Source: Streptomyces sp. NBC_01723
Lineage (GTDB): Bacteria > Actinomycetota > Actinomycetes > Streptomycetales > Streptomycetaceae
Assembly (NCBI RefSeq): GCF_036246005.1
Contig: NZ_CP109171.1
Coordinates: 7,552,001-7,616,000, forward strand
DNA: 64,000 nucleotides
Direction: 5' to 3'
Shown: positions 7,427-49,457 of the stretch, one piece after another
Layout of the letters: each line of letters opens with the position of its first letter
Position numbering within the stretch: the stretch's first letter is position 1
Notes under the pieces: model-generated
Database searches by the model: none
Told to the model about the DNA's origin: nothing
The model's input: the letters and a program-made list of their open reading frames with translations, nothing else
Program-made: the position numbers and the translations under genes

Positions 7427-7542
7427 ACGGGTCTCCGCGGTTGCTTGAAGCCGTCAGGGGCAAACGCGTATCGAGACACCGGGAGGGCGGCGACCGCCGT
7501 CGGACGAGAGAAGGAGGAGCCCCGGGGGAGTGGCCGGGCATG

Positions 7543-7572
7543 AAAAAAGCCCTGCTCCGCGAGGGGACGGCT
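7543..7572 (-). terminator. Intrinsic terminator in the ABC-F leader (attenuator)
   Basis: On the minus strand a GC-rich stem (AGCC...GGCT with inner CCCC/GGAG pairing and one internal loop) is followed directly by six T residues (7548-7543). It lies between the predicted promoter and the ABC-F start, about 115 bases before the start codon, so it should stop transcription before the gene unless the stem is disrupted. Confidence 0.6.
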
Positions 7573-7633
7573 CGAACGCCGAGGTCACACGCTGCGTACA
7601 CACACGTGAGGTGTGTCGCGGTGTCTCAGGACC

Positions 7634-7645
7634 TCAGACGAGCAA
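7634..7645 (-). CDS. Candidate three-residue leader peptide (Met-Leu-Val)
   Basis: On the minus strand TTG-CTC-GTC-TGA follows GGAGAAGG (7656-7649), with seven bases between GGAG and the TTG. It sits about 30 bases after the predicted transcription start and about 60 bases before the attenuator stem. Ribosome stalling on such a mini-ORF could prevent formation of the terminator. This is inferred from position and ribosome binding site only. Confidence 0.35.
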   Translation of the reverse strand: MLV

Positions 7646-7682
7646 CGTCCTTCTCCAATCGGCGGCAACAGAAGCGATATAC

Positions 7683-7711
7683 ACCGTACGAGGGACCGGG
7701 TGCGCTGTCAA
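7683..7711 (-). promoter_or_regulatory. Strong sigma-70-type promoter for the ABC-F operon
   Basis: On the minus strand TTGACA (7711-7706) is separated by 17 bases from TACGGT (7688-7683). This is a consensus -35 with a good TAnnnT -10. The predicted start is near 7676, about 20 bases before the leader-peptide ribosome binding site. Confidence 0.65.
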
Positions 7712-7734
7712 CGTATTTCCGCGCACCCGGTCCC
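7692..7734. repeat. Perfect 14-base inverted repeat enclosing the -35 box
   Basis: GGGACCGGGTGCGC (7692-7705) and its exact complement (7721-7734) flank a 15-base spacer that contains the TTGACA of the ABC-F promoter. The repeat lies in the divergent region between the ABC-F and GPP34 genes. It could be an operator or a hairpin in the GPP34 mRNA leader. Confidence 0.6.
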
Positions 7735-7753
7735 ACGGCCCCGAGGAGGCCCC

Positions 7754-8437
7754 GTGCCCAACGGCCCGCTCTCACTGCCGGCCCGGCTCTGCCTGCTGGC
7801 CTGGGACCCCACGAGGTCCGGGGCCGCGGACACCGCCCGGGTCCACCACCTGGTGCGCGCCGGCGCGCTCACCGAACTGGCCCGGCGCGGCCTGCTCACC
7901 GACGACGACGGCATCGCCACCCCCGTCGACCTGGACTCCCGCACCGGGGACGCGGTCCTCGACGGGCTGCTCGAGCTGGTCCGCGAGTCGCTGCCGCACC
8001 GGTGGCGGACGTGGGTCGCGCTGCACGCGCGGGTCACCTTCGACGCCGTCCGGGAGCAACTGGTGGCCGAGGGCTACCTGCGGGCCGAGAAGAAGCGGGT
8101 GCTCGGGGTGTTCCCGTCCGTGGAGCACGTCCTGGCGCGCCCGGCCGTGGCGAAGGCGCTCCGCGAGGAGACGCGGGAGGTGCTGGAGGGCCGGATCCCG
8201 GCCGGGGAGGTGTCCGAGCGCGACGCGGCCGCGGCCGTGCTCGTCGCCGCCGCGGCACCCGGCCTCCCGGCCGGCGCCGGACACGGCGCGGCCGACGGTG
8301 GGCGCCGCAAGGAGCGCATCGCCGAGCTGACCGAGCGGGGCGGGGCGGCGGCACCCGGGCTGCGGAAGATCGTGGGAGAGGTCTGGGGCGCGGTGAGCGC
8401 GGAGAGCGCCCGGGCCGTGGCGTCGTCGGGGCGCTGA
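7754..8437 (+). CDS. GPP34 (GOLPH3-like) family phosphoprotein
   Basis: This 227-residue protein matches the GOLPH3/GPP34 fold that Streptomyces carry in many copies. In eukaryotes the fold binds phosphoinositides; the bacterial role is not established. Characteristic stretches are LPARLCLLAWDP at the N-terminus, LVRAGALTELARRGLLTDD, and a helical C-terminal half rich in Ala, Glu and Arg. There is no signal peptide or membrane span. GTG 7754 is chosen as start because GAGGAGG lies at 7743-7749; the frame is open further upstream but without a ribosome binding site. It is divergent from the ABC-F gene, sharing a 300-base control region, and convergent with the SsgA-like gene. Confidence 0.78.
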   Translation: MPNGPLSLPARLCLLAWDPTRSGAADTARVHHLVRAGALTELARRGLLTDDDGIATPVDLDSRTGDAVLDGLLELVRESLPHRWRTWVALHARVTFDAVREQLVAEGYLRAEKKRVLGVFPSVEHVLARPAVAKALREETREVLEGRIPAGEVSERDAAAAVLVAAAAPGLPAGAGHGAADGGRRKERIAELTERGGAAAPGLRKIVGEVWGAVSAESARAVASSGR

Positions 8438-8476
8438 GAGGTCGGGGCGCGGAGGCGGGCCGGGGGCGACGGCCGG

Positions 8477-8893
8477 TCAGCAGCTGCCGCGCAGCAGCTC
8501 CGCCAGGTCGTGCTCCAGGTCGAGGTGGAGGTGCTCCATGCCGACGGGCACCAGTTCGCCCGTGGCCGCCAGGAACCGGCGCAGCTCGCCGGAACGCACG
8601 TGGATCACGGCGGTGCCCTCGGGCGCGTGGAACTCCAGGACGGTGCGGTCGTACCCGTACGGGCGCACCCGCACGTCGCCGTGGCCGTCCGGCTCCCGCA
8701 TCCCCGCGATGAGCAGCTCGCGGGAGAAGGTCCAGCAGACCTCCACGCCCTCCAGGGTGGCCGGGGCCGGGAAGGTCATGCGGACGGCGAAGGGGTCGCC
8801 GCGGTCGTAGTGCAGGGTGGCGGGAATGCTCGGCATGCGCGGTGCGGCGGCGACGAGACGCGCCTCGACCGGCTGCTCGATGACGGTGGACAA
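8477..8893 (-). CDS. ssgD: SsgA-like sporulation/cell-division protein (probably SsgD)
   Basis: This 138-residue protein of the SsgA-like family (SALP) is restricted to sporulating actinomycetes. Members guide FtsZ placement, septation and wall remodelling. Family marks are TLHYDRGDPFAVRMTF, the central VCWTFSRELL, and HVRSGELRRFL near the C-terminus. Length fits the usual 130-145 residues. TTG 8893 is chosen as start because GGGAG precedes it and the protein then begins at the normal family position; the frame is open further upstream to 8983 but that stretch is low-complexity. The neighbourhood matches what I recall for ssgD of S. coelicolor (SCO6722), a member linked to lateral wall integrity. 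The family call is firm, the paralogue call less so. Confidence 0.8.
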   Translation of the reverse strand: MSTVIEQPVEARLVAAAPRMPSIPATLHYDRGDPFAVRMTFPAPATLEGVEVCWTFSRELLIAGMREPDGHGDVRVRPYGYDRTVLEFHAPEGTAVIHVRSGELRRFLAATGELVPVGMEHLHLDLEHDLAELLRGSC

Positions 8894-9090
8894 CGCCTTG
8901 CTCCCTCGTGACGGCTGGACGGGCTCTCGGGGTGGTGCGGGCCGGGCACTTGAAGAGACGTGGGAAACAGCCGATCCGTGCACACGAGCATCGAGTGACC
9001 TCTGTCACCGCGTTCATGCACCGGCGTGACTCGGCTCTCCTCGCCCGCCCCGTACGGCACTTGCGCCACGCGCGTGCCGGGCAGGTCCTC

Positions 9091-9119
9091 TGGACGGCTC
9101 ACCCCCGGTGGGCTAGCTT
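9091..9119 (+). promoter_or_regulatory. Promoter of the Asp-box protein gene
   Basis: TGGACG (9091-9096), a 17-base spacer and TAGCTT (9114-9119) precede the ATG at 9128 by only eight bases, so transcription should begin at or just before the start codon. Confidence 0.5.
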
Positions 9120-9127
9120 CGCCCGCC

Positions 9128-10264
9128 ATGAGGCGCTTGGGAAGCACGCGAGGCACGGTACGGCCGATTCGAACCGTTCGCGGGCGCACGGGGCGCAGGG
9201 CGCTCGCGGGGGCGGTCTGCGCGGCGGCGCTGGCCGCGCTGACGACCGTACCGGCGCAGGCCGGCCAGCCGTCGCACGGGGAGCGGAACCGGCCGCACTG
9301 GGAGCTCAAGGGCACCGGGGCGCCCGACGCCCGGTTCCGGGGGCTCGCCGCCGTCAGCCGGCACACCGCGTGGCTGGCCGGCTCCGGGGGCACCGTCCTG
9401 CGCACCACCGACGGCGGTGACACCTGGCGCGACGTCTCCCCGCCGGGCGCCGGCGACCTGGAGTTCCGGGACGTCGAGGCCTTCGACGCCCGCCGGGCCG
9501 TGGTCCTGGCCATCGGAGAGGGCGAGGCGTCCAGGGTCTACCGCACCGCCGACGGCGGAGCCACCTGGACGGAGTCCTTCCGCAACACCGACGCGCGGGC
9601 CTTCTACGACTGCCTCACCTTCTTCGACTCCCGGCACGGACTCGCCATGAGCGACCCGGTGGACGGGAAGTTCCGCATCCTGTCCACCCGCGACGGCGGC
9701 CGCTCCTGGAAGGTGCTCCCGGACCGGGGCATGCCGGCCGCGCAGGACGGCGAGGCCGGGTTCGCGGCCAGTGGCCAGTGCCTGGTCTCCTCCGGTCCGA
9801 GGGACGTGTGGCTGGCCACCGGCGGTGCCGCACGCGCGCGCGTGCTGCACTCCGCCGACCGGGGGCTGACCTGGACGGCCACCGACGCGCCGATCCCGGC
9901 GGGCGACCCGGCGCGGGGCGTCTTCGCCCTCGCCTTCCGCGACCGGGCCCACGGCCTCGCGGTCGGCGGCGACTACCGCCCCGACCAGAGTTCGCCGCGG
10001 GCGGCGGCACGGACCGCTGACGCCGGCCGCACCTGGCGCCCCGCCGACGGGCCGCCGCCGGCCTACCGTTCCGGCGTCGCCTGGCTCCCGCACAGCCGCA
10101 CCGCCGCCCTCGCGGTCGGCCCCACCGGCACCGACCTCACCACGGACGGCGGCCGCACCTGGCGCACCGTCGACACCGGCTCCTACGACACCGTGGACTG
10201 CACGCCCGACCTGGGCTGTTGGGCCGCCGGCGAGCAGGGCAGGGCCGCCCGCCTGGAGTGGTGA
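9128..10264 (+). CDS. Secreted Asp-box (BNR/Ycf48-like) beta-propeller protein
   Basis: This 378-residue protein has a twin-Arg-rich N-terminus and a hydrophobic core (ALAGAVCAAALAALTTV) ending in AQAG, a probable signal peptide. Six Asp-box repeats follow: TTDGGDTW, TADGGATW, TRDGGRSW, SADRGLTW, TADAGRTW and TTDGGRTW. They are spaced as in a beta-propeller of the Ycf48/sialidase type. Annotations often call such proteins oxidoreductases, but I see no cofactor motif; an extracellular binding protein is more likely. Two Cys pairs in the C-terminal part could form disulphides. ATG 9128 is chosen because the signal peptide begins there and a -10 box lies eight bases upstream. Partner unknown. 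Confidence 0.75.
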   Translation: MRRLGSTRGTVRPIRTVRGRTGRRALAGAVCAAALAALTTVPAQAGQPSHGERNRPHWELKGTGAPDARFRGLAAVSRHTAWLAGSGGTVLRTTDGGDTWRDVSPPGAGDLEFRDVEAFDARRAVVLAIGEGEASRVYRTADGGATWTESFRNTDARAFYDCLTFFDSRHGLAMSDPVDGKFRILSTRDGGRSWKVLPDRGMPAAQDGEAGFAASGQCLVSSGPRDVWLATGGAARARVLHSADRGLTWTATDAPIPAGDPARGVFALAFRDRAHGLAVGGDYRPDQSSPRAAARTADAGRTWRPADGPPPAYRSGVAWLPHSRTAALAVGPTGTDLTTDGGRTWRTVDTGSYDTVDCTPDLGCWAAGEQGRAARLEW

Positions 10265-10336
10265 CGCCGGACGGGGAGGGGTGTTGGTCCGTGATGTGGG
10301 TACCCGCTCGCCGAACGTGAGAGGAAGTGAGCGGAC

Positions 10337-10666
10337 ATGCCGCGCGGTTCCAGCACCAAACGCGAACGTCAGTACGAGCACATCAAGGACAGCGCCGAGG
10401 ACCGCGGAGAGAGCACCGGCCGCGCCAAGGAGATCGCGGCCCGGACGGTCAACAAGGAGCGCGCCCGGTCGGGCGAGTCGAAGACCGCCAGTCGCACGTC
10501 GACCCGGGACATGTCGCCGAGCGAGCGGGGCGGCCGGCGGTCGGGCCGCGGCGAGGGACCGCAGGGGCCCACGTACGACCAGCTCTACGAAGAGGCCAAG
10601 CGCCGCAACGTGCACGGCCGTTCGAACATGAACAAGAGCGATCTGCGACGCGCCCTCGGCAAGTGA
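10337..10666 (+). CDS. Small basic protein, 'plasmid stabilisation' type with Rho-N-like end
   Basis: This 109-residue hydrophilic protein is very rich in Arg, Lys, Ser and Gly. The N-terminal half (YEHIKDSAEDRGES...) is probably disordered. The C-terminal 35 residues (TYDQLYEEAKRRNVHGRSNM, then KSDLRRALG) resemble the small helical SAP/Rho N-terminal fold that binds nucleic acid. Homologues in Streptomyces are labelled plasmid stabilisation proteins without experimental basis as far as I know. The ATG follows GAGAGGAAGTGAGCGGAC, a good ribosome binding site. A chromosome- or RNA-associated role is only inferred from composition. Confidence 0.65.
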   Translation: MPRGSSTKRERQYEHIKDSAEDRGESTGRAKEIAARTVNKERARSGESKTASRTSTRDMSPSERGGRRSGRGEGPQGPTYDQLYEEAKRRNVHGRSNMNKSDLRRALGK

Positions 10667-39799: not shown

Positions 39800-40726
39800 T
39801 CAGTGGCACAGGCGCGCCTCGTGCTCGGCGTGCCCGCCGGGTTCCAGCTGGAAGGTGCAGTGCTCCACGTCGAAGTGGTCGCCGAGGCACCCCTGCAACT
39901 CGTGCAGTATCTTCTCGTGGCCGATCGCGCTGAGCGTCTCGCCGCTCACCACCACGTGCGCCGACAGCACCGGCAGGCCCGAGGTGATCGTCCAGGCGTG
40001 CAGGTCGTGCACGTCCTCGACGCCGTCCAGCGCCAGTATGTGGGCGCGCACCTCGCCGATGTCCACGCCCTTGGGGGCCGCCTCCAGGAGCACGTCCAGG
40101 GTCTCGCGCAGCAGCCGCAGCGTGCGCGGCACGATCATCAGACCGATCAGCAGCGACGCGATCGGGTCGGCCGGCTGCCAGCCCGTGGCCAGGATCACCA
40201 GCGCCGAGACGATCACCGCGAGGGACCCCAGCGCGTCGGCCGCCACCTCCAGGAAGGCGCCGCGCACGTTGAGGCTGTCCTTCTGGCCGCGCATCAGCAG
40301 CGACAGCGACACCAGGTTCGCCACCAGGCCGATCGCGCCGAAGACGACGGTCAGTCCGCCCTGGGTGCCGGCGGGTGTGACGAACCGCTCGATCGCCTCG
40401 TACAGCACGTACCCGCCCACGCCGAGCAGCAGCACGCAGTTGGCCAGGGCGGCGAGGATCTCGGCGCGGGCGTAGCCGAAGGTGCGCCGGTCACTGGCCG
40501 GCCGGTTCGCGAAGTGCACGGCCAGCAGCGCCATGCCCAGGCCCAGGGCGTCCGTCGCCATGTGCGCCGCGTCGGCGATCAGGGCCAGCGAGTCGGCCAG
40601 CACCCCGCCGACGATCTCGACGACCATGACGGTGAGGGTGATCCCCAGCGCCACCCGCAGCCTGCCGCGGTACGCGGCCGTCGCCGTCGCGCCGGCCGGC
40701 GCCCCGTGCGCGTGCCCTGCCCCCAT
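39800..40726 (-). CDS. Cation diffusion facilitator (CzcD/ZitB type)
   Basis: This 308-residue CDF exporter of Zn2+ or similar divalent metals, exchanged for protons, has six hydrophobic segments. Transport-site residues are visible in SLALIADAAHMATDALGLG (His/Asp pairs in segment 2) and EVAADALGSLAVIVSAL in segment 5. The N-terminus is His-rich (GAGHAHGAPAG). A cytosolic ferredoxin-like C-terminal domain with DLHAWTITSGLPVLSAHVVV follows. ATG 40726 has GGGAGG about ten bases upstream. A C-rich sequence like a metal-regulator site lies 50 bases further upstream (separate entry). Confidence 0.88.
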   Translation of the reverse strand: MGAGHAHGAPAGATATAAYRGRLRVALGITLTVMVVEIVGGVLADSLALIADAAHMATDALGLGMALLAVHFANRPASDRRTFGYARAEILAALANCVLLLGVGGYVLYEAIERFVTPAGTQGGLTVVFGAIGLVANLVSLSLLMRGQKDSLNVRGAFLEVAADALGSLAVIVSALVILATGWQPADPIASLLIGLMIVPRTLRLLRETLDVLLEAAPKGVDIGEVRAHILALDGVEDVHDLHAWTITSGLPVLSAHVVVSGETLSAIGHEKILHELQGCLGDHFDVEHCTFQLEPGGHAEHEARLCH

Positions 40727-40778
40727 GGGAAAGCCGCCTCCCTGATCTGTCGTCGTCCGGCCTCCGGAGGACAGTCAA

Positions 40779-40796
40779 CTACGGGTAGGGGGTATC
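40779..40796 (-). promoter_or_regulatory. Possible CsoR-like metal-regulator site
   Basis: On the minus strand ATACCCCCTACCCGTAGT runs into GTTGAC. The C-run flanked by TA-rich ends resembles CsoR operators known from other bacteria, but the half-sites are not symmetrical. Position upstream of the metal exporter makes it worth noting. Confidence 0.3.
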
Positions 40797-40831
40797 CGGC
40801 AACGCGGCACTGAACACCGTTGTCATGTGCC

Positions 40832-40860
40832 CTGACCTGCGCAAACGTTATGCAGGTCAG
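40832..40860. repeat. Perfect 9-base inverted repeat in a 470-base gene-free stretch
   Basis: CTGACCTGC-N11-GCAGGTCAG lies between the cation exporter and the seven-gene envelope operon (gap 40727-41196). The rest of the gap shows only a weak TAGCCT box at 41098-41103 that could serve the operon; no ORF in it looks coding. Confidence 0.5.
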
Positions 40861-41196
40861 AGGGCGGGCGACGCTCGGGAGCGCCGTCTGCGCCAGTTGG
40901 CCGAACGGCCGGCGCGCGTGCCGGCCTGACCCTCCGCGAGCACTCGCGGACACTGAGCGATGTCCGTGATGCCCGGTCTGGGTGTGCGGTTTGTGAGCGG
41001 GCCCCCGGATCCACGATGATGATCGCGGCAAAGGCGGGTGCAAGCGGCGCCGACCGACTGTGAAACGGGCGGTGAACACGGCGTTCCCGGCATCCGATAG
41101 CCTCTGCCGACACGCCGCCCGGGTGCCACCGGCACGGGCGTCCCACCATGCACAGGCCCGGCGTTCCAGGCACCGGGCACCAGGGAGTGAGTTCGG

Positions 41197-43014
41197 TTGC
41201 CGACCGCCATCCTCACCGGTCAGCCGGTCCCCGGTTCGTCGATCGAGAGCGAACTGCGGTCCCTGGGCTTCGACGTGCAGCACGCCTCCGGCGCCGCCGA
41301 CACCGAGACGCTGCTGGCCCGCGTCCCGGCCGCGGAACGGGTCGCCGTCGTCGACGCCCGCTTCGTGGGCCACCCGCACGCCCTGCGCCTCGGCCTCACC
41401 GACCCGCGCTTCCCGCTGGCCGCCGTCCCGGGCGCGGTGACCGCCCGCCCCGACGGACGCCAGGCGCTGACCCGGGCGATGGCCCGCGAGAACTCCGCGG
41501 GCGGCGGCACGGCCCTCGCCGTCGACAACCTCGCCGACCGGATCACCGCCGCCCTCGACGCCGACGGCGCCACCGTGCACCGCCCCGAACTGGGCAGCCT
41601 CGTCGCCGCCGTCCCCGGCGACCCGCAGGCCCGCAACGAGGCCCGGCAGGCGGTCGCCGCCGTCGACGACGAGGCCGTACGCCTGAAGTCGGCGGTCAAG
41701 GCCCGCGACGGCTTCGTCACCACCTTCGCCATCAGCCCCTACTCCCGCTACATCGCCCGCTGGTGCGCCCGGCGCGGACTGACCCCCAACCAGGTCACCA
41801 CCGCCTCACTGCTCACCGCGCTGATAGCGGCCGGCTGCGCGGCCACCGGCACCCGCGGCGGCTTCGTCGCCGCCGGCGTCCTGCTGATCGCGTCCTTCGT
41901 CCTCGACTGCACCGACGGGCAGCTCGCCCGCTACTCCCTGCAGTACTCCACGCTCGGCGCCTGGCTGGACGCCACCTTCGACCGCGCCAAGGAGTACGCC
42001 TACTACGCGGGCCTCGCCCTCGGAGCCGCCCGCGGCGGCGACGACGTGTGGGCCCTCGCGCTCGGCGCGATGGTCCTCCAGACCTGCCGGCACGTCGTCG
42101 ACTTCTCGTTCAACGAGGCCAACCACGACGCCGCCGCCAACACCAGCCCCACCGCCGCCCTCTCCGACCGGCTCGACAGCGTCGGCTGGACGGTCTGGCT
42201 CCGCCGCATGATCGTCCTGCCCATCGGCGAGCGCTGGGCCATGATCGCCGTCCTGACCGCGGTCACCACCCCCCGGATCACCTTCTACGCGCTGCTGATC
42301 GGCTGCGCCTTCGCCGCGACGTACACCACGGCGGGCCGGGTCCTGCGCTCGCTGACCAGGAAGGCGACACGGACCGACCGGGCCGCGAAGGCGCTGGCCG
42401 ACCTCGCGGACTCCGGCCCGCTCGCCGAGGCCGGAGCCAAGGGCCTCGCGAAGACCGCCCGCCGGCTCCCCGGCTTCGCCGCCCCCGCGCTCGCCCTGCT
42501 CGGCGGCCTCGCCGTCGTCGCGACGGCCGTCTTCACCGACTTCGGCGGCCCCTGGCCGCTCCTCGGCGCGATCGTCTACGTGCTGACCTCCGCCCTGGCC
42601 GTCGCCCGCCCCCTCAAGGGCGCCCTCGACTGGCTCGTCCCGCCGTTCTTCCGGGCCGCCGAGTACGGCACCGTCCTGGCACTGGCGGCGAAAGCCGACG
42701 TGAACGGGGCGCTTCCGGCGGCTTTCGGGCTGGTGGCCGCGGTCGCCTACCATCACTACGACACGGTCTACCGCATCCGTGGCGACGCGGGCGCGCCGCC
42801 GCAGTGGCTGGTGCGGACGACCGGGGGGCACGAGGGCCGCACGCTGGTGATCACCGCGCTGGCCGTGCTGCTCACCGCCACACAGTTCAAGGTCGCGCTC
42901 ACGGTCCTCGCCGTGGCCGTGGCACTCGTGGTGCTCGTGGAGAGCATCCGCTTCTGGGTCGCCGCCCACAAGGTCGGCGCACCCGCCGTACACGACGAAG
43001 GAGAACCCGCATGA
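41197..43014 (+). CDS. CDP-alcohol phosphotransferase with DUF5941-type C-terminus
   Basis: This 605-residue three-part protein has an N-terminal 170 residues that form a soluble alpha/beta domain I cannot assign (TAILTGQPVPGSSIESEL...). Residues about 190-400 are a membrane CDP-alcohol phosphotransferase with the complete signature DCTDGQLAR-x8-G-x3-D-x3-D (near 235), including all four Asp. The last 150 residues are again hydrophobic and look like DUF5941. It should transfer a phospho-alcohol from a CDP donor to a membrane acceptor. The start is TTG 41197 after GGGAG (nine bases). It is the first gene of a seven-gene overlapping operon and overlaps the nucleotidyltransferase by four bases. 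Confidence 0.82.
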   Translation: MPTAILTGQPVPGSSIESELRSLGFDVQHASGAADTETLLARVPAAERVAVVDARFVGHPHALRLGLTDPRFPLAAVPGAVTARPDGRQALTRAMARENSAGGGTALAVDNLADRITAALDADGATVHRPELGSLVAAVPGDPQARNEARQAVAAVDDEAVRLKSAVKARDGFVTTFAISPYSRYIARWCARRGLTPNQVTTASLLTALIAAGCAATGTRGGFVAAGVLLIASFVLDCTDGQLARYSLQYSTLGAWLDATFDRAKEYAYYAGLALGAARGGDDVWALALGAMVLQTCRHVVDFSFNEANHDAAANTSPTAALSDRLDSVGWTVWLRRMIVLPIGERWAMIAVLTAVTTPRITFYALLIGCAFAATYTTAGRVLRSLTRKATRTDRAAKALADLADSGPLAEAGAKGLAKTARRLPGFAAPALALLGGLAVVATAVFTDFGGPWPLLGAIVYVLTSALAVARPLKGALDWLVPPFFRAAEYGTVLALAAKADVNGALPAAFGLVAAVAYHHYDTVYRIRGDAGAPPQWLVRTTGGHEGRTLVITALAVLLTATQFKVALTVLAVAVALVVLVESIRFWVAAHKVGAPAVHDEGEPA

Positions 43015-43763
43015 TCGGCCTCGTGCTGGCGGCCGGCGCCGGACGCCGTCTGCGCCCCTACACCGACACCCTGCCCAAGGCACTGGTCCCGGTCGGCCCC
43101 GAGGGTGCGGAGGACAGCATCACGGTGCTGGACCTGACGCTGGCGAACTTCGCCGAGGTCGGCCTGACCGAGGTCGGGATCATCGTCGGCTACCGCAAGG
43201 AAGCCGTGTACGACCGCAAGGAGGCGCTGGAGCAGAAGTACGGCGTCAAGCTCACCCTCATCGACAACGACAAGGCCGAGGAGTGGAACAACGCCTACTC
43301 CCTGTGGTGCGGCCGTGACGCCCTCAAGGACGGCGTGATCCTCGCCAACGGCGACACCGTGCACCCGGTCTCCGTCGAGAAGACCCTGCTCGCCGCCCGC
43401 GGCGACGGCAAGAAGATCATCCTCGCCCTCGACACGGTGAAGAACCTCGCCGAGGAGGAGATGAAGGTCGTCGTCGACCCCGACAAGGGCGTCCAGCGCA
43501 TCACCAAGCTGATGGACCCGGCGGAGGCGACCGGCGAGTACATCGGCGTCACCCTCATCGAGGGCGATGCCGCCGCCGACCTGGCCGACGCGCTGAAGAC
43601 CACCTTCGAGCGCGACCCGCAGCTGTACTACGAGGACGGCTACCAGGAGCTGGTCAACCGCGGCTTCAAGATCGACGTGGCGCCGATCGGCGACCTCAAG
43701 TGGGTCGAGATCGACAACCACGACGACCTCGCCAAGGGCCGGGAGATCGCGTGCCAGTACTGA
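43011..43763 (+). CDS. Nucleotidyltransferase of the alcohol-phosphate cytidylyltransferase type
   Basis: This 250-residue GT-A-fold nucleotidyltransferase has the nucleotide-binding loop LVLAAGAGRRLRPYTDTLPKAL, the metal-side stretch GVILANGDTV, and WNNAYSLWCGRD, which recalls LicC-like phosphocholine or inositol-phosphate cytidylyltransferases more than hexose-1-phosphate enzymes. Sitting between two CDP-alcohol phosphotransferases, it most likely makes the CDP-alcohol they use. This is inference from motif and context. ATG 43011 overlaps the preceding stop codon (ATGA), with GGAG seven bases upstream. Confidence 0.82.
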   Translation: MIGLVLAAGAGRRLRPYTDTLPKALVPVGPEGAEDSITVLDLTLANFAEVGLTEVGIIVGYRKEAVYDRKEALEQKYGVKLTLIDNDKAEEWNNAYSLWCGRDALKDGVILANGDTVHPVSVEKTLLAARGDGKKIILALDTVKNLAEEEMKVVVDPDKGVQRITKLMDPAEATGEYIGVTLIEGDAAADLADALKTTFERDPQLYYEDGYQELVNRGFKIDVAPIGDLKWVEIDNHDDLAKGREIACQY

Positions 43764-44812
43764 CGAGGCTCATCCCGTCGCCGGTCGTCGTGGACATCCG
43801 CGCGGGTGCCCTCGACGACCTGGGAGCCGTGCTCGCCGACGAGCGCATCTCCCACTCGGGCAAGCTCGCCGTCGCCGTCAGCGGCGGTTCCGGCGCCCGG
43901 CTGCGTGAGCGCGTCACTCCTTCCCTGCCCGGCGCCGACTGGTTCGAGGTCGGCGGCGGCACCCTGGACGACGCGATCAACCTGGCCGGCGCCATGAAGG
44001 GCGGCCACTACGACGCGGTCGTGGGCCTCGGCGGCGGCAAGATCATCGACTGTGCCAAGTTCGCCGCGGCGCGCATCGGCCTCCCGCTGGTCGCCGTGCC
44101 CACGAACCTCGCGCACGACGGTCTGTGCTCGCCGGTCGCCACCCTGGACAACGACGCGGGCCGCGGCTCCTACGGCGTGCCGAACCCGATCGCGGTCGTC
44201 ATCGACCTGGACGTCATCCGCGCGGCCCCGGCCCGCTTCGTGCGCGCCGGCATCGGTGACGCCGTCTCCAACGTCTCCGCGATCGCGGACTGGGAGCTGG
44301 CGAACCGGGTCAAGGGCGAGCGGATCGACGGCCTGGCCGCCGCCATGGCCCGCCAGGCGGGCGAGGCCGTGCTCCGGCACCCGGGCGGCATCGGGGACAA
44401 CGAGTTCCTCCAGGTGCTGGCCGAGGCGCTGGTGCTCAGCGGCATCGCCATGTCGGTGTCGGGCGACTCGCGGCCGTCCTCGGGCGCCTGCCACGAGATC
44501 AACCACGCCCTCGACCTGCTCTTCCCCACCCGCGCGGCCGCCCACGGCGAGCAGTGCGGACTGGGCGCGGCCTTCGCGATGTACCTGCGCGGTGCCCACG
44601 AGGAGTCCGCCCACATGGCCGAGGTGCTGCGCCGGCACGGGCTGCCGGTACTGCCGGAGGAGATCGGCTTCACACCCCAGGAGTTCTTCCGGGCCGTGGA
44701 GTACGCCCCCCAGACCCGGCCCGGCCGCTACACGATCCTCGAGCACCTCGACCTGAAAACCGACCAGATCAAGGACCTGTACGCCGACTATGTCAAGGCC
44801 ATCGGTAGCTGA
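43751..44812 (+). CDS. Glycerol-1-phosphate dehydrogenase-like (iron-ADH family) enzyme
   Basis: This 353-residue NAD(P)-dependent dehydrogenase of the iron-containing/dehydroquinate-synthase-like fold has its dinucleotide loop in VGLGGGKIIDCAKFAA near residue 100. Metal ligands are probably Asp of NLAHDGLCSP, His of CHEINHALDLLF and His of AAHGEQCGLG. This pattern fits bacterial sn-glycerol-1-phosphate dehydrogenases (AraM/EgsA type). It would make a polyol phosphate from a keto-phosphate to supply the cytidylyltransferase. GTG 43751 lies 13 bases inside the previous gene and has GGAG six bases upstream. Product identity (glycerol-1-phosphate or another polyol phosphate) is unproven. Confidence 0.82.
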   Translation: MPVLTRLIPSPVVVDIRAGALDDLGAVLADERISHSGKLAVAVSGGSGARLRERVTPSLPGADWFEVGGGTLDDAINLAGAMKGGHYDAVVGLGGGKIIDCAKFAAARIGLPLVAVPTNLAHDGLCSPVATLDNDAGRGSYGVPNPIAVVIDLDVIRAAPARFVRAGIGDAVSNVSAIADWELANRVKGERIDGLAAAMARQAGEAVLRHPGGIGDNEFLQVLAEALVLSGIAMSVSGDSRPSSGACHEINHALDLLFPTRAAAHGEQCGLGAAFAMYLRGAHEESAHMAEVLRRHGLPVLPEEIGFTPQEFFRAVEYAPQTRPGRYTILEHLDLKTDQIKDLYADYVKAIGS

Positions 44813-45569
44813 ACTACGTCCGGTCGTCCATCCCGCGGGGGTCAAGGACCGGCGCAGCGGTGAGCACTGGGCGGGACGCCTCTACATGCGCGAGGTCTCG
44901 CTGCGGATCGACCGCTACCTGGTGAACACCAGGATCACGCCCAACCAGCTCACGTACCTGATGACCGTCTGCGGCGTGCTCGCGGCCCCGGCCCTGCTGG
45001 TGCCGGGGATCACGGGCGCCGTGCTCGGCGTCGTCGCCGTCCAGCTCTACCTGCTGCTGGACTGCGTCGACGGCGAGATCGCCCGCTGGCGCAAGCAGTA
45101 CTCGCTCGCCGGTGTCTACCTGGACCGGGTCGGCGCCTACCTGACCGACGCCGCGGTCCTGGTCGGCCTCGGTCTGCGCGCCGCCGACGTGTTCGGCACC
45201 GGGCGGATCGACTGGCTGTGGGCCTTCCTCGGCACCCTGGCCGCGCTCGGCGCCATCCTGATCAAGGCCGAGACCGACCTCGTCGGCGTGGCCCGGCACC
45301 AGACCGGCAAGGCGCCGGTGGCGGAGGCCGCCTCCGAGCCGCGCTCCTCCGGCATGGCGCTGGCCCGCCGGGCCGCCGGGGCGCTCAAGTTCCACCGGCT
45401 GATCCTCGGCATCGAGGCGTCCCTGCTGATCCTCGTCCTCGCGATCGTCGACGAGAGCCGCGGCGACCTCTTCTTCACCCGCCTCGGCACCGCCGTACTC
45501 GCCGGCATCGCGCTGCTGCAGACCCTGCTGCACCTGGTGTCCATCCTCGCCTCCAGCAGGCTGAAGTGA
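44790..45569 (+). CDS. Second CDP-alcohol phosphotransferase, fourth Asp missing
   Basis: This 259-residue integral membrane protein of the CDP-alcohol phosphotransferase family has the signature DCVDGEIAR-x8-G-x3-D-RVG-A near residue 90. The first three Asp and the AR pair are present, but the fourth Asp, thought to be the catalytic base, is Ala. Hydrophobic segments before and after match the six-helix family fold. Either another residue supplies the base or the acceptor chemistry differs. ATG 44790 begins 23 bases inside the dehydrogenase gene; its stop overlaps the glycosyltransferase GTG by four bases. Confidence 0.78.
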   Translation: MSRPSVAELRPVVHPAGVKDRRSGEHWAGRLYMREVSLRIDRYLVNTRITPNQLTYLMTVCGVLAAPALLVPGITGAVLGVVAVQLYLLLDCVDGEIARWRKQYSLAGVYLDRVGAYLTDAAVLVGLGLRAADVFGTGRIDWLWAFLGTLAALGAILIKAETDLVGVARHQTGKAPVAEAASEPRSSGMALARRAAGALKFHRLILGIEASLLILVLAIVDESRGDLFFTRLGTAVLAGIALLQTLLHLVSILASSRLK

Positions 45570-46450
45570 GCGCGCCCATGAAGGTCGGCGCCGTCATCAT
45601 CACGATGGGCAACCGTCCCGAGGAGCTGCGGGCCCTGATCGACTCGGTCGCCAAGCAGGACGGCGACCCGGTCCAGGTCGTCGTCGTCGGCAACGGCTCG
45701 CCCGTCCCGGAGGTGCCGGACGGCGTGCGCACCGTCGAGCTGCCCGAGAACCTGGGCATCCCCGGCGGCCGCAACGTCGGCATCGAGGCCTTCGGACCGG
45801 GCGGGAGCGACGTCGACGTCCTGCTCTTCCTCGACGACGACGGTCTGCTCGCCCGCACCGACACCGCCGAGCTGTGCCGCGAGGCGTTCGCGGCCGACGA
45901 CGAGCTGGGCATCATCAGCTTCCGCATCGCCGACCCGGACACCGGCGAGACCCAGCGGCGGCACGTCCCCCGGCTGCGCGCCTCGGACCCGATGCGCTCC
46001 TCCCGGGTGACCACCTTCCTCGGCGGCGCCAACGCCGTGCGCACCCGCGTCCTCACCCAGGTCGGCGGCCTCCCGGACGCGTTCTTCTACGCCCACGAGG
46101 AGACCGACCTGGCCTGGCGGGCGCTCGACGCGGGCTGGATGATCGACTACCGGTCGGACATGGTGCTCAACCACCCCACGACCGCTCCCTCCCGGCACGC
46201 GGTCTACCACCGCATGGTCGCCCGCAATCGCGTCTGGCTCGCCCGTCGCAACCTGCCCGCGCTCCTGGTCCCGGTGTACCTGGGCGTCTGGATGCTGCTC
46301 ACCCTGCTGCGCCGCCCCTCGCGACCTGCGCTGAAGGCCTGGTTCGGCGGTTTCCGGGAGGGCTGGGCGACCCCGTGCGGTCCCCGCCGGCCCATGCGGT
46401 GGCGTACGGTGTGGCGCCTGACCCGGCTGGGCCGCCCTCCGGTGATCTGA
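45566..46450 (+). CDS. Family 2 glycosyltransferase
   Basis: This 294-residue inverting GT-A glycosyltransferase has an N-terminal nucleotide-binding strand VGAVIITMGNRPEEL, NLGIPGGRNVGI, and the metal-binding FLDDDG near residue 90. The acceptor-side stretch FYAHEETDLAWRAL contains the usual ED. The C-terminal hydrophobic patch (LPALLVPVYLGVWMLLTLL) suggests membrane attachment. In this operon it probably adds a sugar to a lipid-linked or polyol-phosphate product. GTG 45566 is chosen for its four-base overlap with the previous stop codon; ATG 45578 is the alternative. Confidence 0.85.
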   Translation: MSAPMKVGAVIITMGNRPEELRALIDSVAKQDGDPVQVVVVGNGSPVPEVPDGVRTVELPENLGIPGGRNVGIEAFGPGGSDVDVLLFLDDDGLLARTDTAELCREAFAADDELGIISFRIADPDTGETQRRHVPRLRASDPMRSSRVTTFLGGANAVRTRVLTQVGGLPDAFFYAHEETDLAWRALDAGWMIDYRSDMVLNHPTTAPSRHAVYHRMVARNRVWLARRNLPALLVPVYLGVWMLLTLLRRPSRPALKAWFGGFREGWATPCGPRRPMRWRTVWRLTRLGRPPVI

Positions 46451-46547
46451 CAAGCTCGTACCCGAGAGCGTTCCGGCCCCGACCGGGGCCAACAGGTCCG
46501 TGCCAGGCCCGCGCGGCCGAGCATTCCGAAGACGAAAGTATCCACCA

Positions 46548-47477
46548 GTGAGTGAGACAACGCACGACGGCACGGTCGCCATGACCAAGCCCGTGGCGCC
46601 CGACGAGGGCCTCCCACCGGCCCGGCTCGCCGCCAAGTACGGGCTGTCCGTGAGCGGTGCCCGGCCGTCCCTCGTGGAGTACGTCCGTCAGCTCTGGGGC
46701 CGGCGGCACTTCATCCTCGCCTTCTCCCAGGCGAAGCTGACCGCCCAGTACAGCCAGGCCAAGCTCGGCCAGCTGTGGCAGGTGGCCACCCCGCTGCTCA
46801 ACGCGCTCGTCTACTTCCTGATCTTCGGCCTGATCCTGAACGCGGGCAAGGGCATGCCGAAGGACGTGTACATCCCGTTCCTGGTGACGGGTGTGTTCGT
46901 CTTCACCTTCACCCAGTCCTCGGCCATGGCGGGCGTCCGCGCGATCTCCGGCAACCTCGGCCTGGTGCGCGCGCTGCACTTCCCGCGCGCCTCGCTGCCG
47001 ATCTCGTTCGCGCTCCAGCAGCTCCAGCAGCTGCTGGCCTCGATGATCGTGATGTTCGCCGTGGTGATCGGGTTCGGCAGCTACCCGAAGCTGTCCTGGC
47101 TGCTGGTGGTGCCGACGCTCGTCCTGCAGTTCCTCTTCAACGTGGGCCTGGCGCTGATCGTGGCGCGCATGGGGGCCAAGACCCCGGACCTCGCCCAGCT
47201 GATGCCGTTCATCATGCGGACCTGGATGTACGCCTCGGGCGTCATGTTCTCCATCCCGATCATGCTGGAGGAGCACCCGTCCTGGATCTCGGACGTCCTC
47301 CAGTGGAACCCGGCCGCGATCTACATGGACCTGATGCGCTTCGCGCTCATCGACGGGTACGGCTCCGAGAACCTGCCGCCGCACGTCTGGGCGGTCGGGC
47401 TCGGCTGGGCCGTGGTCCTCGCCGTGGGCGGCTTCGTGTACTTCTGGAAGGCGGAGGAGAGGTACGGCCGTGGCTGA
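46548..47477 (+). CDS. ABC-2 type exporter permease (TagG/Wzm-like)
   Basis: This 309-residue ABC-2 permease has about six hydrophobic segments, beginning with an amphipathic interface region (FSQAKLTAQYSQAKLGQLWQ) typical of polysaccharide exporters TagG, Wzm and RfbD. It should export a lipid-linked glycan or polymer together with the ATPase encoded next. GTG 46548 has GAAAG nine bases upstream. There is a 97-base gap after the glycosyltransferase gene, the only real gap in the operon. The stop codon overlaps the ATPase start by eight bases. Confidence 0.87.
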   Translation: MSETTHDGTVAMTKPVAPDEGLPPARLAAKYGLSVSGARPSLVEYVRQLWGRRHFILAFSQAKLTAQYSQAKLGQLWQVATPLLNALVYFLIFGLILNAGKGMPKDVYIPFLVTGVFVFTFTQSSAMAGVRAISGNLGLVRALHFPRASLPISFALQQLQQLLASMIVMFAVVIGFGSYPKLSWLLVVPTLVLQFLFNVGLALIVARMGAKTPDLAQLMPFIMRTWMYASGVMFSIPIMLEEHPSWISDVLQWNPAAIYMDLMRFALIDGYGSENLPPHVWAVGLGWAVVLAVGGFVYFWKAEERYGRG

Positions 47478-48249
47478 GCAGCAGCAGGGCGAGCGGGTGC
47501 CGACGGTCATCGCGGACGAGCTGCACATCGTCTACCGGGTCAACGGCGCCAAGACCGGCAAGGGCAGCGCGACCGCCGCCCTGAGCAGGATCATCAAGCG
47601 CGGCGAGGAGCGGGGCGTGCGCAAGGTGCACGCCGTGCGGGGCGTCTCCTTCACCGCCTACCGCGGCGAGGCCATCGGCCTCATCGGTTCCAACGGCTCC
47701 GGCAAGTCGACGCTGCTGCGGGCCATCGCCGGCCTGCTGCCCGCCGAGCGCGGCAAGGTCTACACGGACGGCCAGCCCTCGCTGCTCGGCGTGAACGCGG
47801 CCCTGATGAACGACCTGACCGGCGAGCGGAACGTCATCCTCGGTGGCCTGGCCATGGGCATGACCCGCGAGCAGATCAAGGAGCGCTACCAGGACATCGT
47901 CGACTTCTCCGGGATCAACGAGAAGGGCGATTTCATCACCCTGCCGATGCGCACCTACTCGTCCGGCATGTCCGCCCGGCTGCGCTTCTCCATCGCCGCC
48001 GCCAAGGACCACGACGTCCTGATGATCGACGAGGCGCTGGCCACCGGCGACCGCAAGTTCCAGACCCGCTCCGAGGAGCGCATCCGGGAGTTGAAGAAGG
48101 AGGCGGGCACCGTCTTCCTGGTCAGCCACAACAACAAGTCCATCCGCGACACCTGCAACCGCGTCCTGTGGCTGGAGCGCGGCGAACTGCGCATGGACGG
48201 CCCGACGGACGAGGTGCTCAAGGAGTACGAGAAGTTCACGGGCAAGTAG
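47470..48249 (+). CDS. ABC exporter ATPase (TagH/Wzt-like, short form)
   Basis: This 259-residue ATPase has Walker A GSNGSGKST near residue 76, the signature SSGMSARLRFSIA and Walker B DVLMIDEALATGD. The long N-terminal strand region (LHIVYRVNGAKTGKGSATAA) and the RISKRG-like segment before the first strand are typical of TagH-type glycan exporters. It lacks the C-terminal carbohydrate-binding extension found in some Wzt proteins, so it probably does not read the end of the chain. It partners the permease encoded upstream. GTG 47470 overlaps the permease gene. A strong hairpin terminator follows. Confidence 0.88.
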   Translation: MAEQQQGERVPTVIADELHIVYRVNGAKTGKGSATAALSRIIKRGEERGVRKVHAVRGVSFTAYRGEAIGLIGSNGSGKSTLLRAIAGLLPAERGKVYTDGQPSLLGVNAALMNDLTGERNVILGGLAMGMTREQIKERYQDIVDFSGINEKGDFITLPMRTYSSGMSARLRFSIAAAKDHDVLMIDEALATGDRKFQTRSEERIRELKKEAGTVFLVSHNNKSIRDTCNRVLWLERGELRMDGPTDEVLKEYEKFTGK

Positions 48250-48261
48250 GCCGACACGCCG

Positions 48262-48288
48262 GGGCCCCGCCGTCTTCCGGCGGGGCCC
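48262..48288 (+). terminator. Terminator of the envelope operon
   Basis: GGGCCCCGCC-N7-GGCGGGGCCC forms a perfect ten-pair stem 12 bases after the ATPase stop codon. It separates the operon from the hopanoid genes. Confidence 0.75.
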
Positions 48289-48390
48289 ACGCGCGTGCAA
48301 AGGAACCGTCAACTCCTGGTGTTCTCAGGAATCTTGATGTGAATCGGTGTGTTGTTGTGATGCGCCGAGCACCCCGCGGGAAGTCCGTGA

Positions 48391-48443
48391 GTTGTACAAC
48401 GTAAGCTGGACCGGTCCTGAATCGCGGCACATGGGGCGATAAT
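48391..48443 (+). promoter_or_regulatory. Hopanoid operon promoter region with GTTGTACAAC palindrome
   Basis: In the 293-base gap before hpnC, GTTGTACAAC (48391-48400) is a perfect ten-base palindrome, and GATAAT (48438-48443) matches the -10 consensus in five of six bases. No good -35 stands 17 bases upstream of it, so an activator may be needed. The remainder of the gap shows no coding pattern. Confidence 0.4.
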
Positions 48444-48542
48444 GCCCGACACCCTCCACCGGGCCTGCCCGCGGGCGGCCGGGCGGCGTGTCCGAAATAG
48501 TGTGTATTGGTGCGGCAGTGTAGAACGGGAGATGTGACGGCA

Positions 48543-49457
48543 ATGGCTACGGAAACTCCCCGGCTCCCCGAAGCGTGCGCCGTCGACGCGGAGCGCGGCA
48601 CCCTGGCCAAGGCCGCCGACGAGAACTTCCCCGTGGCCCCCTTCTTCCTGCCGCGCGACTGGCGCACCGACCTCATGGCCGTGTACGGCTTCGCCCGTCT
48701 CGTCGACGACATCGGCGACGGCGACCTCGCGCCGGGCGGCGCCGACGCCCGTCTCCTCGGCGTCCCCGACGACCGCGCAGACGACCGCGTGCTGATGCTG
48801 GACGCCTTCGAGGAGGACCTGCACCGGGTCTTCGACGGCACCCCCCGCCACCCGCTGCTGCGCCGCCTGCGGCCCACCGTCCGCCGCCGCTCGCTGACCC
48901 CCGCACCCTTCCTCGGCCTGATCGCCGCCAACCGTCAGGACCAGCTCGTACGGCGGTACGAGACCTACGACGACCTCCTCGCCTACTGCGAGCTGTCCGC
49001 CAACCCGGTCGGCCACCTCGTCCTCGCCGTCACCGGCACCGCGACGCCCGAGCGGATCCGCCGCTCCGACGCCGTCTGCACCGCCCTGCAGATCGTCGAG
49101 CACCTCCAGGACGTCGCCGAGGACCTCGGCCGGGACCGGATCTACCTGCCCGCCGAGGACATGAAGCGCTTCCACGTCCAGGAGGCGGACCTCGCCGCGC
49201 CCACCGCCAACGCGTCGGTGCGCGCCCTGCTCGCCTACGAGGCCCGGCGCGCCCACGACCTGCTGGACGAGGGCGCCCCTCTGGTCGGCAGCGTCCACGG
49301 CAGGCTGCGTCTGCTGCTCGCGGGGTTCGTGGCGGGGGGCAGGGCCGCCCTGCGGGCGATCGCCGACGCGGATCACGACGTACTTCCCGGCCCGCCCAAG
49401 CCCGGCAAGCTCCGGTTGCTGCGCGAGGCGGGGCTGGCCCTGCGAGGAGAGGGGTGA
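48543..49457 (+). CDS. hpnC: Hydroxysqualene synthase HpnC
   Basis: This 304-residue member of the squalene/phytoene synthase family is the HpnC branch, which turns presqualene diphosphate into hydroxysqualene. Substrate-Mg2+ Asp motifs are in YGFARLVDDIGDGD near residue 57 and EHLQDVAEDLGRDRIYLP near residue 190. ATG 48543 is taken as start; GGGAG lies 11 bases upstream, and a GTG at 48534 is an alternative. It is the first gene of the hopanoid operon. Its stop codon overlaps the HpnD GTG by four bases. Confidence 0.92.
   Translation: MATETPRLPEACAVDAERGTLAKAADENFPVAPFFLPRDWRTDLMAVYGFARLVDDIGDGDLAPGGADARLLGVPDDRADDRVLMLDAFEEDLHRVFDGTPRHPLLRRLRPTVRRRSLTPAPFLGLIAANRQDQLVRRYETYDDLLAYCELSANPVGHLVLAVTGTATPERIRRSDAVCTALQIVEHLQDVAEDLGRDRIYLPAEDMKRFHVQEADLAAPTANASVRALLAYEARRAHDLLDEGAPLVGSVHGRLRLLLAGFVAGGRAALRAIADADHDVLPGPPKPGKLRLLREAGLALRGEG

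What the first reader, a model, noticed from the sequence alone, without database searches (positions are those of the whole stretch)
41197..48249. Seven-gene CDP-alcohol / glycosyltransferase / ABC exporter operon of unknown product
Seen: seven same-strand genes, mostly with 4-23-base overlaps, coding for a CDP-alcohol phosphotransferase fusion, a cytidylyltransferase-like enzyme, a glycerol-1-phosphate-dehydrogenase-like enzyme, a second CDP-alcohol phosphotransferase, a GT2 enzyme and a TagGH-like exporter. Established: these families make, activate and transfer phospho-alcohols and export glycans. Inference: keto-phosphate to polyol phosphate, to CDP-polyol, to a membrane-linked glycosylated product, then export. 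It lies directly before the hopanoid operon. A bacterial glycerol-1-phosphate-type dehydrogenase in such a set is uncommon, and I know of no assigned product.
Basis: partly seen in the sequence, partly recalled or inferred. Interest (0 to 1): 0.78.

Follow-up and report, generated by a model that had tools for sequence, protein, structure and literature searches.

The report
Glycerol-1-phosphate teichoic-type envelope operon
Streptomyces and, in shorter or rearranged forms, many related bacteria carry a conserved gene set that likely turns a sugar-breakdown product into an activated form of the "archaeal" mirror image of glycerol phosphate, would load it onto a membrane lipid and would export it as a teichoic-acid-type surface molecule, which could explain how bacteria that lack the textbook enzyme for activated glycerol obtain these molecules.

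Summary
In detail: seven same-strand genes (41197-48249), followed by a strong hairpin before the hopanoid genes. The core is not rare: the nucleotidyltransferase sits directly upstream of the glycerol-1-phosphate-dehydrogenase-like gene in 76 of 79 named actinobacterial loci.

Best reading (inferred): DHAP to sn-glycerol-1-phosphate (g3), to CDP-glycerol (g2), to a lipid acceptor through a Kennedy-type phosphotransferase (g1), then glycosylation (g5) and export (g6/g7). The product would be teichoic-acid-like.

Support: the genome has seven TagF-type places but no TagD and only one strong IspD. In 396 genomes TagD and g3 relatives of 100 bits or more never co-occur. g6/g7 have 69/82% paralogues in a TagF locus. 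A g1 model matches AF2299 (CDP-glycerol donor pocket), and its DUF5941 tail overlays the extra helices of choline phosphotransferases (low-confidence region). GGGPS is absent from 101 of 101 Streptomyces.

New oddity: g4 has lost the fourth catalytic Asp (Ala in streptomycetes, His in most others); g1 keeps it. Against: many genomes with the core lack TagF, and the exporter is near in only 11 of 18 full-length loci with g4. Substrates, stereochemistry and product are untested. The synteny, with a teichoic-acid association, is already in print (PMC13118837).

The parts
41197..43014 (+). g1: membrane CDP-alcohol phosphotransferase fusion: degenerate cytidylyltransferase-like N-terminus (aa ~1-165), CDP-AP domain with intact D-D-G-A-R-G-D-D signature (aa 237-262, nt 41905-41982), C-terminal DUF5941 helices (aa 394-605)
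43011..43763 (+). g2: LicC/IPCT-type nucleotidyltransferase, predicted CTP:glycerol-1-phosphate cytidylyltransferase
   Evidence: named 'phosphocholine cytidylyltransferase family protein' in S. fungicidicus; adjacent to g3 in 76 of 79 loci; single copy in the genome apart from a 26-bit hit
43751..44812 (+). g3: glycerol-1-phosphate-dehydrogenase-like enzyme (Fe-ADH_2)
   Evidence: NF002022 245.7 bits (cut-off 413); PDB 3ce9, 4rgq, 4rfl; conserved His/Asp and SRPxSG columns; single copy
44790..45569 (+). g4: six-helix CDP-alcohol phosphotransferase paralogue whose fourth signature Asp is Ala (aa 116, nt 45135-45137)
45578..46450 (+). g5: family 2 glycosyltransferase (alternative start 45566)
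46548..47477 (+). g6: TagG-like ABC-2 permease, 69% identical to a permease in one of the genome's TagF loci
47470..48249 (+). g7: TagH-like ABC ATPase, 82% identical to the ATPase beside that permease
48255..48297 (+). strong hairpin between the operon and the hopanoid genes; possible end of the transcript
   Evidence: no U tract

Best explanation
The seven genes most likely form an envelope pathway in which g3 is predicted to reduce dihydroxyacetone phosphate to sn-glycerol-1-phosphate, g2 would activate it with CTP, g1 would transfer the glycerol phosphate to a membrane lipid, g5 would add sugar, and g6/g7 would export the teichoic-acid-type product. Shown here: gene order, conservation, motifs, paralogy of the exporter, presence and absence of other pathway genes. 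Inferred: every substrate and the product. g1 resembles AF2299 (N-terminal cytidylyltransferase-like domain plus CDP-AP), and its extra C-terminal helices (DUF5941) would bind a lipid acceptor, as in choline/ethanolamine phosphotransferases. g4 would be a non-canonical partner, perhaps a heterodimer subunit or an enzyme whose acceptor is already ionised (for example a lipid phosphate). The same CDP-glycerol pool would also feed the TagF-type polymerases encoded elsewhere in this genome, which has no TagD.
For: Linkage: g2 lies within 150 bp upstream of g3 in 76 of 79 named loci (one more excluded at a contig edge). Teichoic context: an IspD+SDR gene in 8 loci and a TagF-like gene in 8 loci (7 Streptosporangiales and one Stackebrandtia each), and LCP-type genes in 17 loci, among 103 loci (one representative of each Pfam-tested). 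In genome G386 a TagF gene lies about 1.4 kb beyond g5 of the set; in G121 TagF is divergent from and about 0.1 kb from g2-g3. Exporter: the only close paralogue of g6 in the genome (69%) lies in a TagF locus with an 82% paralogue of g7 beside it; in a 13-row tree that ATPase falls in a supported clade with the Streptomyces operon ATPases. Supply gap: 7 PF04464 places, no TagD match, one strong IspD only (218 bits; others 35 and 25). Co-occurrence: of 30 genomes with strong TagF (E <= 1e-40), 17 have g3 (100 bits or more) and no TagD, 6 have TagD and no g3, 7 have neither, 0 have both; 10 of the 17 also lack a second strong IspD. No overlap between TagD (16 genomes, E <= 1e-20) and g3 of 100 bits or more (43 genomes) in 396. 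Chemistry: g1 keeps the full signature (21 of 21 rows; 120 of 120). AF2299's donor pocket accommodates the glycerol of CDP-glycerol, and lipid-acceptor CDP-APs carry extra C-terminal helices (PMC4634129, passages). The g1 model overlays AF2299 and human choline phosphotransferase. GGGPS is absent from 101 of 101 Streptomyces, so glycerol-1-phosphate needs another use.
Against: g3 scores below the NCBIfam equivalog cut-off for glycerol-1-phosphate dehydrogenase (245.7 against 413); g2 is below all 15 listed cut-offs and g7 below all 25 shown of 181. 6 of 21 genomes with a close g3 (E <= 1e-90) have no strong TagF (G045, G086, G108, G317, G338, G370), and 26 of 31 non-Streptomyces genomes with g3 of 100 bits or more lack strong TagF, so the core does not depend on TagF. 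7 of 16 TagD genomes have no TagF match either. 6 of 12 Streptomyces and G204 have a second strong IspD, so CDP-ribitol is an alternative supply there. 3 genomes of one genus have TagF and none of the three sources. 69 of 101 Streptomyces have sub-threshold TagD-like matches (best 70 bits, cut-off 165). Only 18 of 58 full-length loci carry g4, and the exporter is near in only 11 of these 18. DUF5941 is a separate gene, not fused to g1, in Streptosporangiales and Nocardiopsis. The DUF5941 part of the model has low pLDDT (about 35-55), and by sequence profile choline phosphotransferases matched only weakly and only in the CDP-AP core. Twelve of the 17 co-occurrences are one genus; the E-value limits were set after seeing the lists. 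3 of 79 loci lack g2 beside g3, and nothing TagD-like replaces it there.
Confidence: 0.4

Rival explanations
1. Same pathway logic with another polyol: g3 reduces a pentulose or tetrulose phosphate (for example ribulose-5-phosphate) and g2 makes CDP-ribitol, -arabitol or -erythritol for a teichoic-type polymer.
For: The Fe-ADH_2 family is broad; g3 is below the glycerol-1-phosphate dehydrogenase cut-off. 7 Streptosporangiales loci carry a ribitol-type IspD+SDR gene near the set.
Against: Glycerol-1-phosphate dehydrogenase is by far the best model (245.7 bits against 88.5 for glycerol dehydrogenase). Where ribitol-type genes are present they sit beside the set as separate genes, so g2/g3 would be redundant.
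Confidence: 0.2
2. An inositol or soluble phosphodiester pathway like IPCT-DIPPS of Archaeoglobus: g2 makes CDP-inositol and the CDP-APs make a soluble or lipid-linked inositol phosphodiester.
For: IPCT-DIPPS or IPCT is among the best sequence or fold matches of g1, g2 and g4.
Against: It leaves the conserved g2-g3 pairing unexplained. The extra helices on g1 and the TagGH-type exporter fit a lipid-linked product better. Inositol-phosphate synthase genes were not searched for.
Confidence: 0.12
3. A minor phospholipid or glycophospholipid (for example a phosphatidylglycerol-like lipid made by a Kennedy-type route, then glycosylated and flipped), perhaps working with hopanoids, without any polymer.
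Against: hpnC was not found in the other 100 loci searched, many of them short. The exporter has its close paralogue in a TagF locus.
Confidence: 0.2
4. Archaeal-type ether lipid precursor supply, as suggested for Streptomyces in PMC6431249 (G1PDH, GGGPS and DGGGPS orthologues listed; passages read).
For: g3 is G1PDH-like, and that paper places bacterial G1PDH mainly in Firmicutes and Actinobacteria.
Against: GGGPS (PF01884) is absent from this genome and from 101 of 101 Streptomyces, with the control ringing in 7 of 14 named genomes.
Confidence: 0.03

Closest known systems
AF2299 and IPCT-DIPPS of Archaeoglobus fulgidus (CDP-alcohol phosphotransferases with an N-terminal cytidylyltransferase-like domain)
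   Different: g1 has an added C-terminal helical module (DUF5941); g4 lacks the fourth Asp; both sit in a gene set with an exporter.
Kennedy-pathway choline/ethanolamine phosphotransferases (CHPT1, CEPT1)
   Different: The sequence-level match is weak and limited to the core; the acceptor is unknown; choline or ethanolamine genes were not searched for.
Wall teichoic acid pathway (TagD, TagF, TagGH)
   Same: CDP-glycerol-type precursor (inferred) and a TagGH-type exporter with its close paralogue in a TagF locus of the genome.
   Different: No TagD; the CDP-alcohol would come from g3+g2 with the opposite glycerol configuration; membrane CDP-APs take part.
Archaeal glycerol-1-phosphate dehydrogenase and Bacillus AraM
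   Same: Glycerol-1-phosphate dehydrogenase is the best family model for g3, and archaeal entries are among its best solved relatives.
   Different: No GGGPS partner; paired instead with a cytidylyltransferase-like gene. AraM was not compared directly.
Streptomyces lipoteichoic acid (PMC3196553; passages read)
   Same: A glycerol-phosphate polymer known in a streptomycete, for which the paper states that clear LtaS orthologues are lacking and an alternative route is likely.
   Different: I found no paper tying a gene of this operon to it; the link is inference.

Membership tests
Class I CDP-alcohol phosphotransferase (g1) | Signature D-x2-D-G-x2-A-R-x8-G-x3-D-x3-D | tested here: met
   Intact in the window, 21 of 21 rows, 120 of 120 listed homologues
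Class I CDP-alcohol phosphotransferase (g4) | Same signature including the fourth Asp, the likely catalytic base | tested here: not met
   Ala in the window, 12 of 12 Streptomyces loci and 120 of 120 listed homologues; 28 His and 2 Ala in 30 rows. The fold is met
Lipid-acceptor (CEPT1-type) CDP-AP | Extra C-terminal transmembrane helices | tested here: inconclusive
   The g1 model overlays CHPT1/CEPT1 over aa 169-601, but the C-terminal part has low pLDDT
Glycerol-1-phosphate dehydrogenase equivalog NF002022 | Curated score of 413 bits | tested here: not met
   245.7 bits
Glycerol-1-phosphate dehydrogenase | Conserved His/Asp residues (metal ligands, recalled) and SRPxSG motif shared with archaeal chains | tested here: met
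   (3ce9, the best solved match, lacks the Arg)
Glycerol-1-phosphate dehydrogenase | Reduces DHAP to sn-glycerol-1-phosphate | not testable with these tools
   enzyme assay needed
LicC/IPCT-type cytidylyltransferase (g2) | NTP_transferase sequence family with closest solved relatives named as CTP-using | tested here: met
   LicC 1jyk 1.9e-12 (residues 3-111); 4jd0 9.4e-07
TagH equivalog | Curated score of 320 bits (NF010066) | tested here: not met
   187.3 bits; but 82% identical to the ATPase in a TagF locus of the genome
Canonical TagD-dependent teichoic acid pathway | TagD (TIGR01518) in the genome | tested here: not met
   No match in this genome; over the cut-off in 0 of 101 Streptomyces
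Archaeal-type ether lipid pathway | GGGPS (PF01884) | tested here: not met
LtaS-type lipoteichoic acid pathway | LtaS orthologue | not tested
   Lack of clear orthologues stated in PMC3196553 (passages), not searched here

The most novel reading that the evidence does not exclude
Streptomycetes and other actinomycetes build their glycerol teichoic or lipoteichoic acids from the archaeal enantiomer: a glycerol-1-phosphate dehydrogenase and a LicC-like enzyme make CDP-(sn-1)-glycerol in the cytoplasm, a Kennedy-type phosphotransferase with DUF5941 as its lipid-binding module primes it on a membrane lipid together with a base-less CDP-AP partner, and a duplicated TagGH exports it. This would be a stereochemically inverted, TagD- and LtaS-free teichoic acid pathway.
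Probability: 0.27. Interest if true: 0.85.

Novelty: new variant of a known kind. Interest (0 to 1): 0.63.

Why it matters
How actinomycetes make lipoteichoic acid without a clear LtaS is stated as an open question in PMC3196553, and this genome has seven TagF-type places without TagD. The operon offers a concrete, testable source. It would also explain bacterial glycerol-1-phosphate dehydrogenases that have been read as possible signs of archaeal-type lipids, give DUF5941 a function, and present a CDP-alcohol phosphotransferase lineage that has lost its catalytic base.

Tried and rejected
Archaeal-type ether lipids: rejected, GGGPS absent. Hopanoid modification: adjacency seen only in Streptomyces loci and across a hairpin. 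A TagD-like replacement in the three loci without g2 (L057-L059): none found by eye among the ORFs listed. Plasmid origin: of the plasmid hits, S. fungicidicus has the full annotated set and two more large Streptomyces and Nonomuraea replicons have most of it; the Nitratidesulfovibrio and Cytobacillus hits read are lone g3-like genes. Sigma-70-like promoter scan and Rfam gathering search of 40700-48700: nothing; one weak terminator-like match on the other strand. The c57 gene before DUF5941 in Nocardiopsis has no Pfam match (one representative) and no motif; by position and residual similarity, judged by eye, I read it as a degenerate g1.

Literature: searches for CDP-AP with hopanoid and Streptomyces, for G1PDH with Streptomyces and CDP-alcohol, for S. 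coelicolor tags SCO6753-6758 (recalled), and for CDP-glycerol with glycerol-1-phosphate, teichoic acid and Streptomyces gave, in what I saw (listings, and passages of a few papers), no functional assignment; PMC13118837 notes the synteny, one search listed one network-inference paper (not opened), one search found none. The library holds open-licence papers only.

Limits: gene calls in comparison loci come from my own crude GC3-based script, so some starts and ORFs are wrong and 21 of the 103 loci lacked a called g3; counts that matter were made by tblastn or motif search. At least two pairs of rows are one contig (L034/L056, L038/L058). In a few motif rows the scan took a spacing one too long; read with the standard spacing they keep Asp. 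Co-occurrence counts use 30 of 49 TagF-positive genomes; the 19 weaker ones dropped include G108 (with g3) and G217, G249, G281 (with TagD). P-values are not corrected for phylogeny.
Full report
WHAT IS THERE. Seven genes run on the + strand from 41197 to 48249, with overlaps of 4, 13, 23 and 8 bp and gaps of 8 and 97 bp. Pfam and NCBIfam give: g1 CDP-alcohol phosphotransferase + DUF5941; g2 nucleotidyltransferase; g3 Fe-ADH_2, nearest to glycerol-1-phosphate dehydrogenase (245.7 bits, below the 413 cut-off); g4 a second CDP-alcohol phosphotransferase; g5 a family 2 glycosyltransferase; g6/g7 an ABC-2 exporter, its ATPase nearest to TagH. A hairpin of -43.6 kcal/mol (z -3.2, no U tract) lies at 48255-48297; a gene 84% identical to annotated hpnC starts at 48543. 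The window lies in an 8.85 Mb genome; the named homologues of g1 among the 120 listed are from Streptomyces.

HOW WIDESPREAD. g3 relatives (E <= 1e-20) occur in 62 of 396 sampled genomes of the phylum, including all 12 of the same genus. g2 lies within 150 bp upstream of g3 in 76 of 79 (one more excluded at a contig edge). Layouts seen: the full set in Streptomyces; most of it in Streptosporangiales, with DUF5941 as a separate gene and no exporter found within the locus; the Nocardiopsis layout, with TagG-TagH, a degenerate g1 remnant and separate DUF5941; and a short set g2-g3-CDP-AP in Micromonosporaceae. Of 58 full-length loci 18 carry g4, and 11 of these 18 have the TagH gene near. PMC13118837 (one passage) already reports this synteny in Streptomyces and associates it with teichoic acid biosynthesis; the passage offers no pathway.

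THE TWO PHOSPHOTRANSFERASES. PMC4634129 (passages) gives the eight-residue signature, names the fourth Asp as the likely base, and reports that Asp-to-Asn there nearly abolishes activity. g1 has the full signature in the window, in 21 of 21 rows and in 120 of 120 listed homologues. g4 does not: Ala in the window, in 12 of 12 Streptomyces loci (the window's own locus included) and in 120 of 120 listed homologues; in 30 rows 28 His and 2 Ala. The single CDP-APs of the short set keep Asp (38 of 38), as do the six more distant ones that the motif scan found (L040, L041, L042, L044, L046, L047). In 12 Nocardiopsis-type loci the His form is the only CDP-AP with a recognisable motif. So His can probably serve there, whereas the streptomycete Ala form is unlikely to do standard chemistry alone. 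A heterodimer with g1, or an acceptor that needs no deprotonation, are the two ideas I would test.

GENOME CONTEXT. This genome has seven PF04464 (TagF-type) places, no TagD and one strong IspD (218 bits; others 35 and 25). The only close paralogue of g6 is in a TagF locus at 3.1 Mb (69%), with an 82% paralogue of g7 beside it; that ATPase falls in a supported clade with the Streptomyces operon ATPases (13 rows). GGGPS is absent here and from 101 of 101 sampled Streptomyces, whereas PMC6431249 (passages) credits some Streptomyces with the archaeal set. In the 396-genome sample, 30 genomes have strong TagF (E <= 1e-40; 19 weaker ones set aside): 17 with g3 of 100 bits or more and no TagD, 6 with TagD and no g3, 7 with neither (4 of these have a second IspD), 0 with both. 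Chance of no overlap is 0.003 if genomes were independent, which they are not. Three TagD-positive genomes (G217, G281, G337) have weak g3-like hits of 73-75 bits; I count these as other Fe-ADH enzymes. 7 of 16 TagD genomes have no TagF match. Of 21 genomes with a close g3 (E <= 1e-90), 15 have strong TagF and 6 do not; outside Streptomyces it is 3 of 9 (Fisher p 0.006), and 5 of 31 for g3 of 100 bits or more (p 0.01). Physical links: TagF lies about 1.4 kb beyond the set in G386, and divergent from and about 0.1 kb from g2-g3 in G121. Eight loci carry IspD+SDR and eight a TagF-like gene near the set (7 Streptosporangiales and one Stackebrandtia each); 17 carry LCP-type genes.

INTERPRETATION. 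The g2-g3 pair is best read as a maker of CDP-glycerol of sn-1 configuration. That would serve the CDP-APs first, because the core exists in many genomes without strong TagF, and the TagF polymerases second. Streptomyces hygroscopicus has a glycerol-phosphate lipoteichoic acid very similar to its wall teichoic acid, and no clear LtaS orthologue is known in sequenced actinobacterial genomes (PMC3196553, passages); a cytoplasmic CDP-glycerol route with TagGH-type export fits that. That lipoteichoic acids of Firmicutes have sn-1 and wall teichoic acids sn-3 glycerol phosphate is recalled, not checked here. Shown: anatomy, conservation, motif loss, co-occurrence, paralogy. Inferred: all substrates, the lipid acceptor, the role of g4 and g5, the product and its stereochemistry.

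VERDICT. A real and widespread actinobacterial gene set with no function assigned in the papers I could see; a new variant of CDP-alcohol/teichoic-type pathways rather than a new category. The hopanoid adjacency is probably incidental.

Noticed in passing
L050 (G334) 9379-10506: A second g3-like gene (74% identical) lies without g2 or CDP-AP between ribosomal-protein/obgE genes and an rne-like gene (read by eye), about 6 kb from TagF-type genes.
   Followed up: partly
L045 (G121) 7334-10281: A TagF-type gene is divergent from and about 0.1 kb from a g2-g3 pair; no CDP-AP match in the 20 kb stretch.
   Followed up: partly
L042, L044, L047: A distant g2-g3 pair in another family of the phylum, with a ~680-aa gene upstream and, in L042, a ~580-aa phosphodiesterase-like gene downstream (read by eye); a CDP-AP lies about 5.5-8.6 kb away.
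   Followed up: no
L090, L094, L103, L114, L116, L130: IspD+SDR fusion (CDP-ribitol-synthase-like) and TagF-like genes directly upstream of the set, on the other strand.
   Followed up: partly
L148 (own genome, 3.106-3.108 Mb): A second TagGH pair inside a TagF gene cluster.
   Followed up: yes
L053, NC_008741 plasmid of Nitratidesulfovibrio vulgaris: A lone g3-like gene a few kb from type III secretion genes, without g2 or CDP-AP among the annotated neighbours.
   Followed up: no
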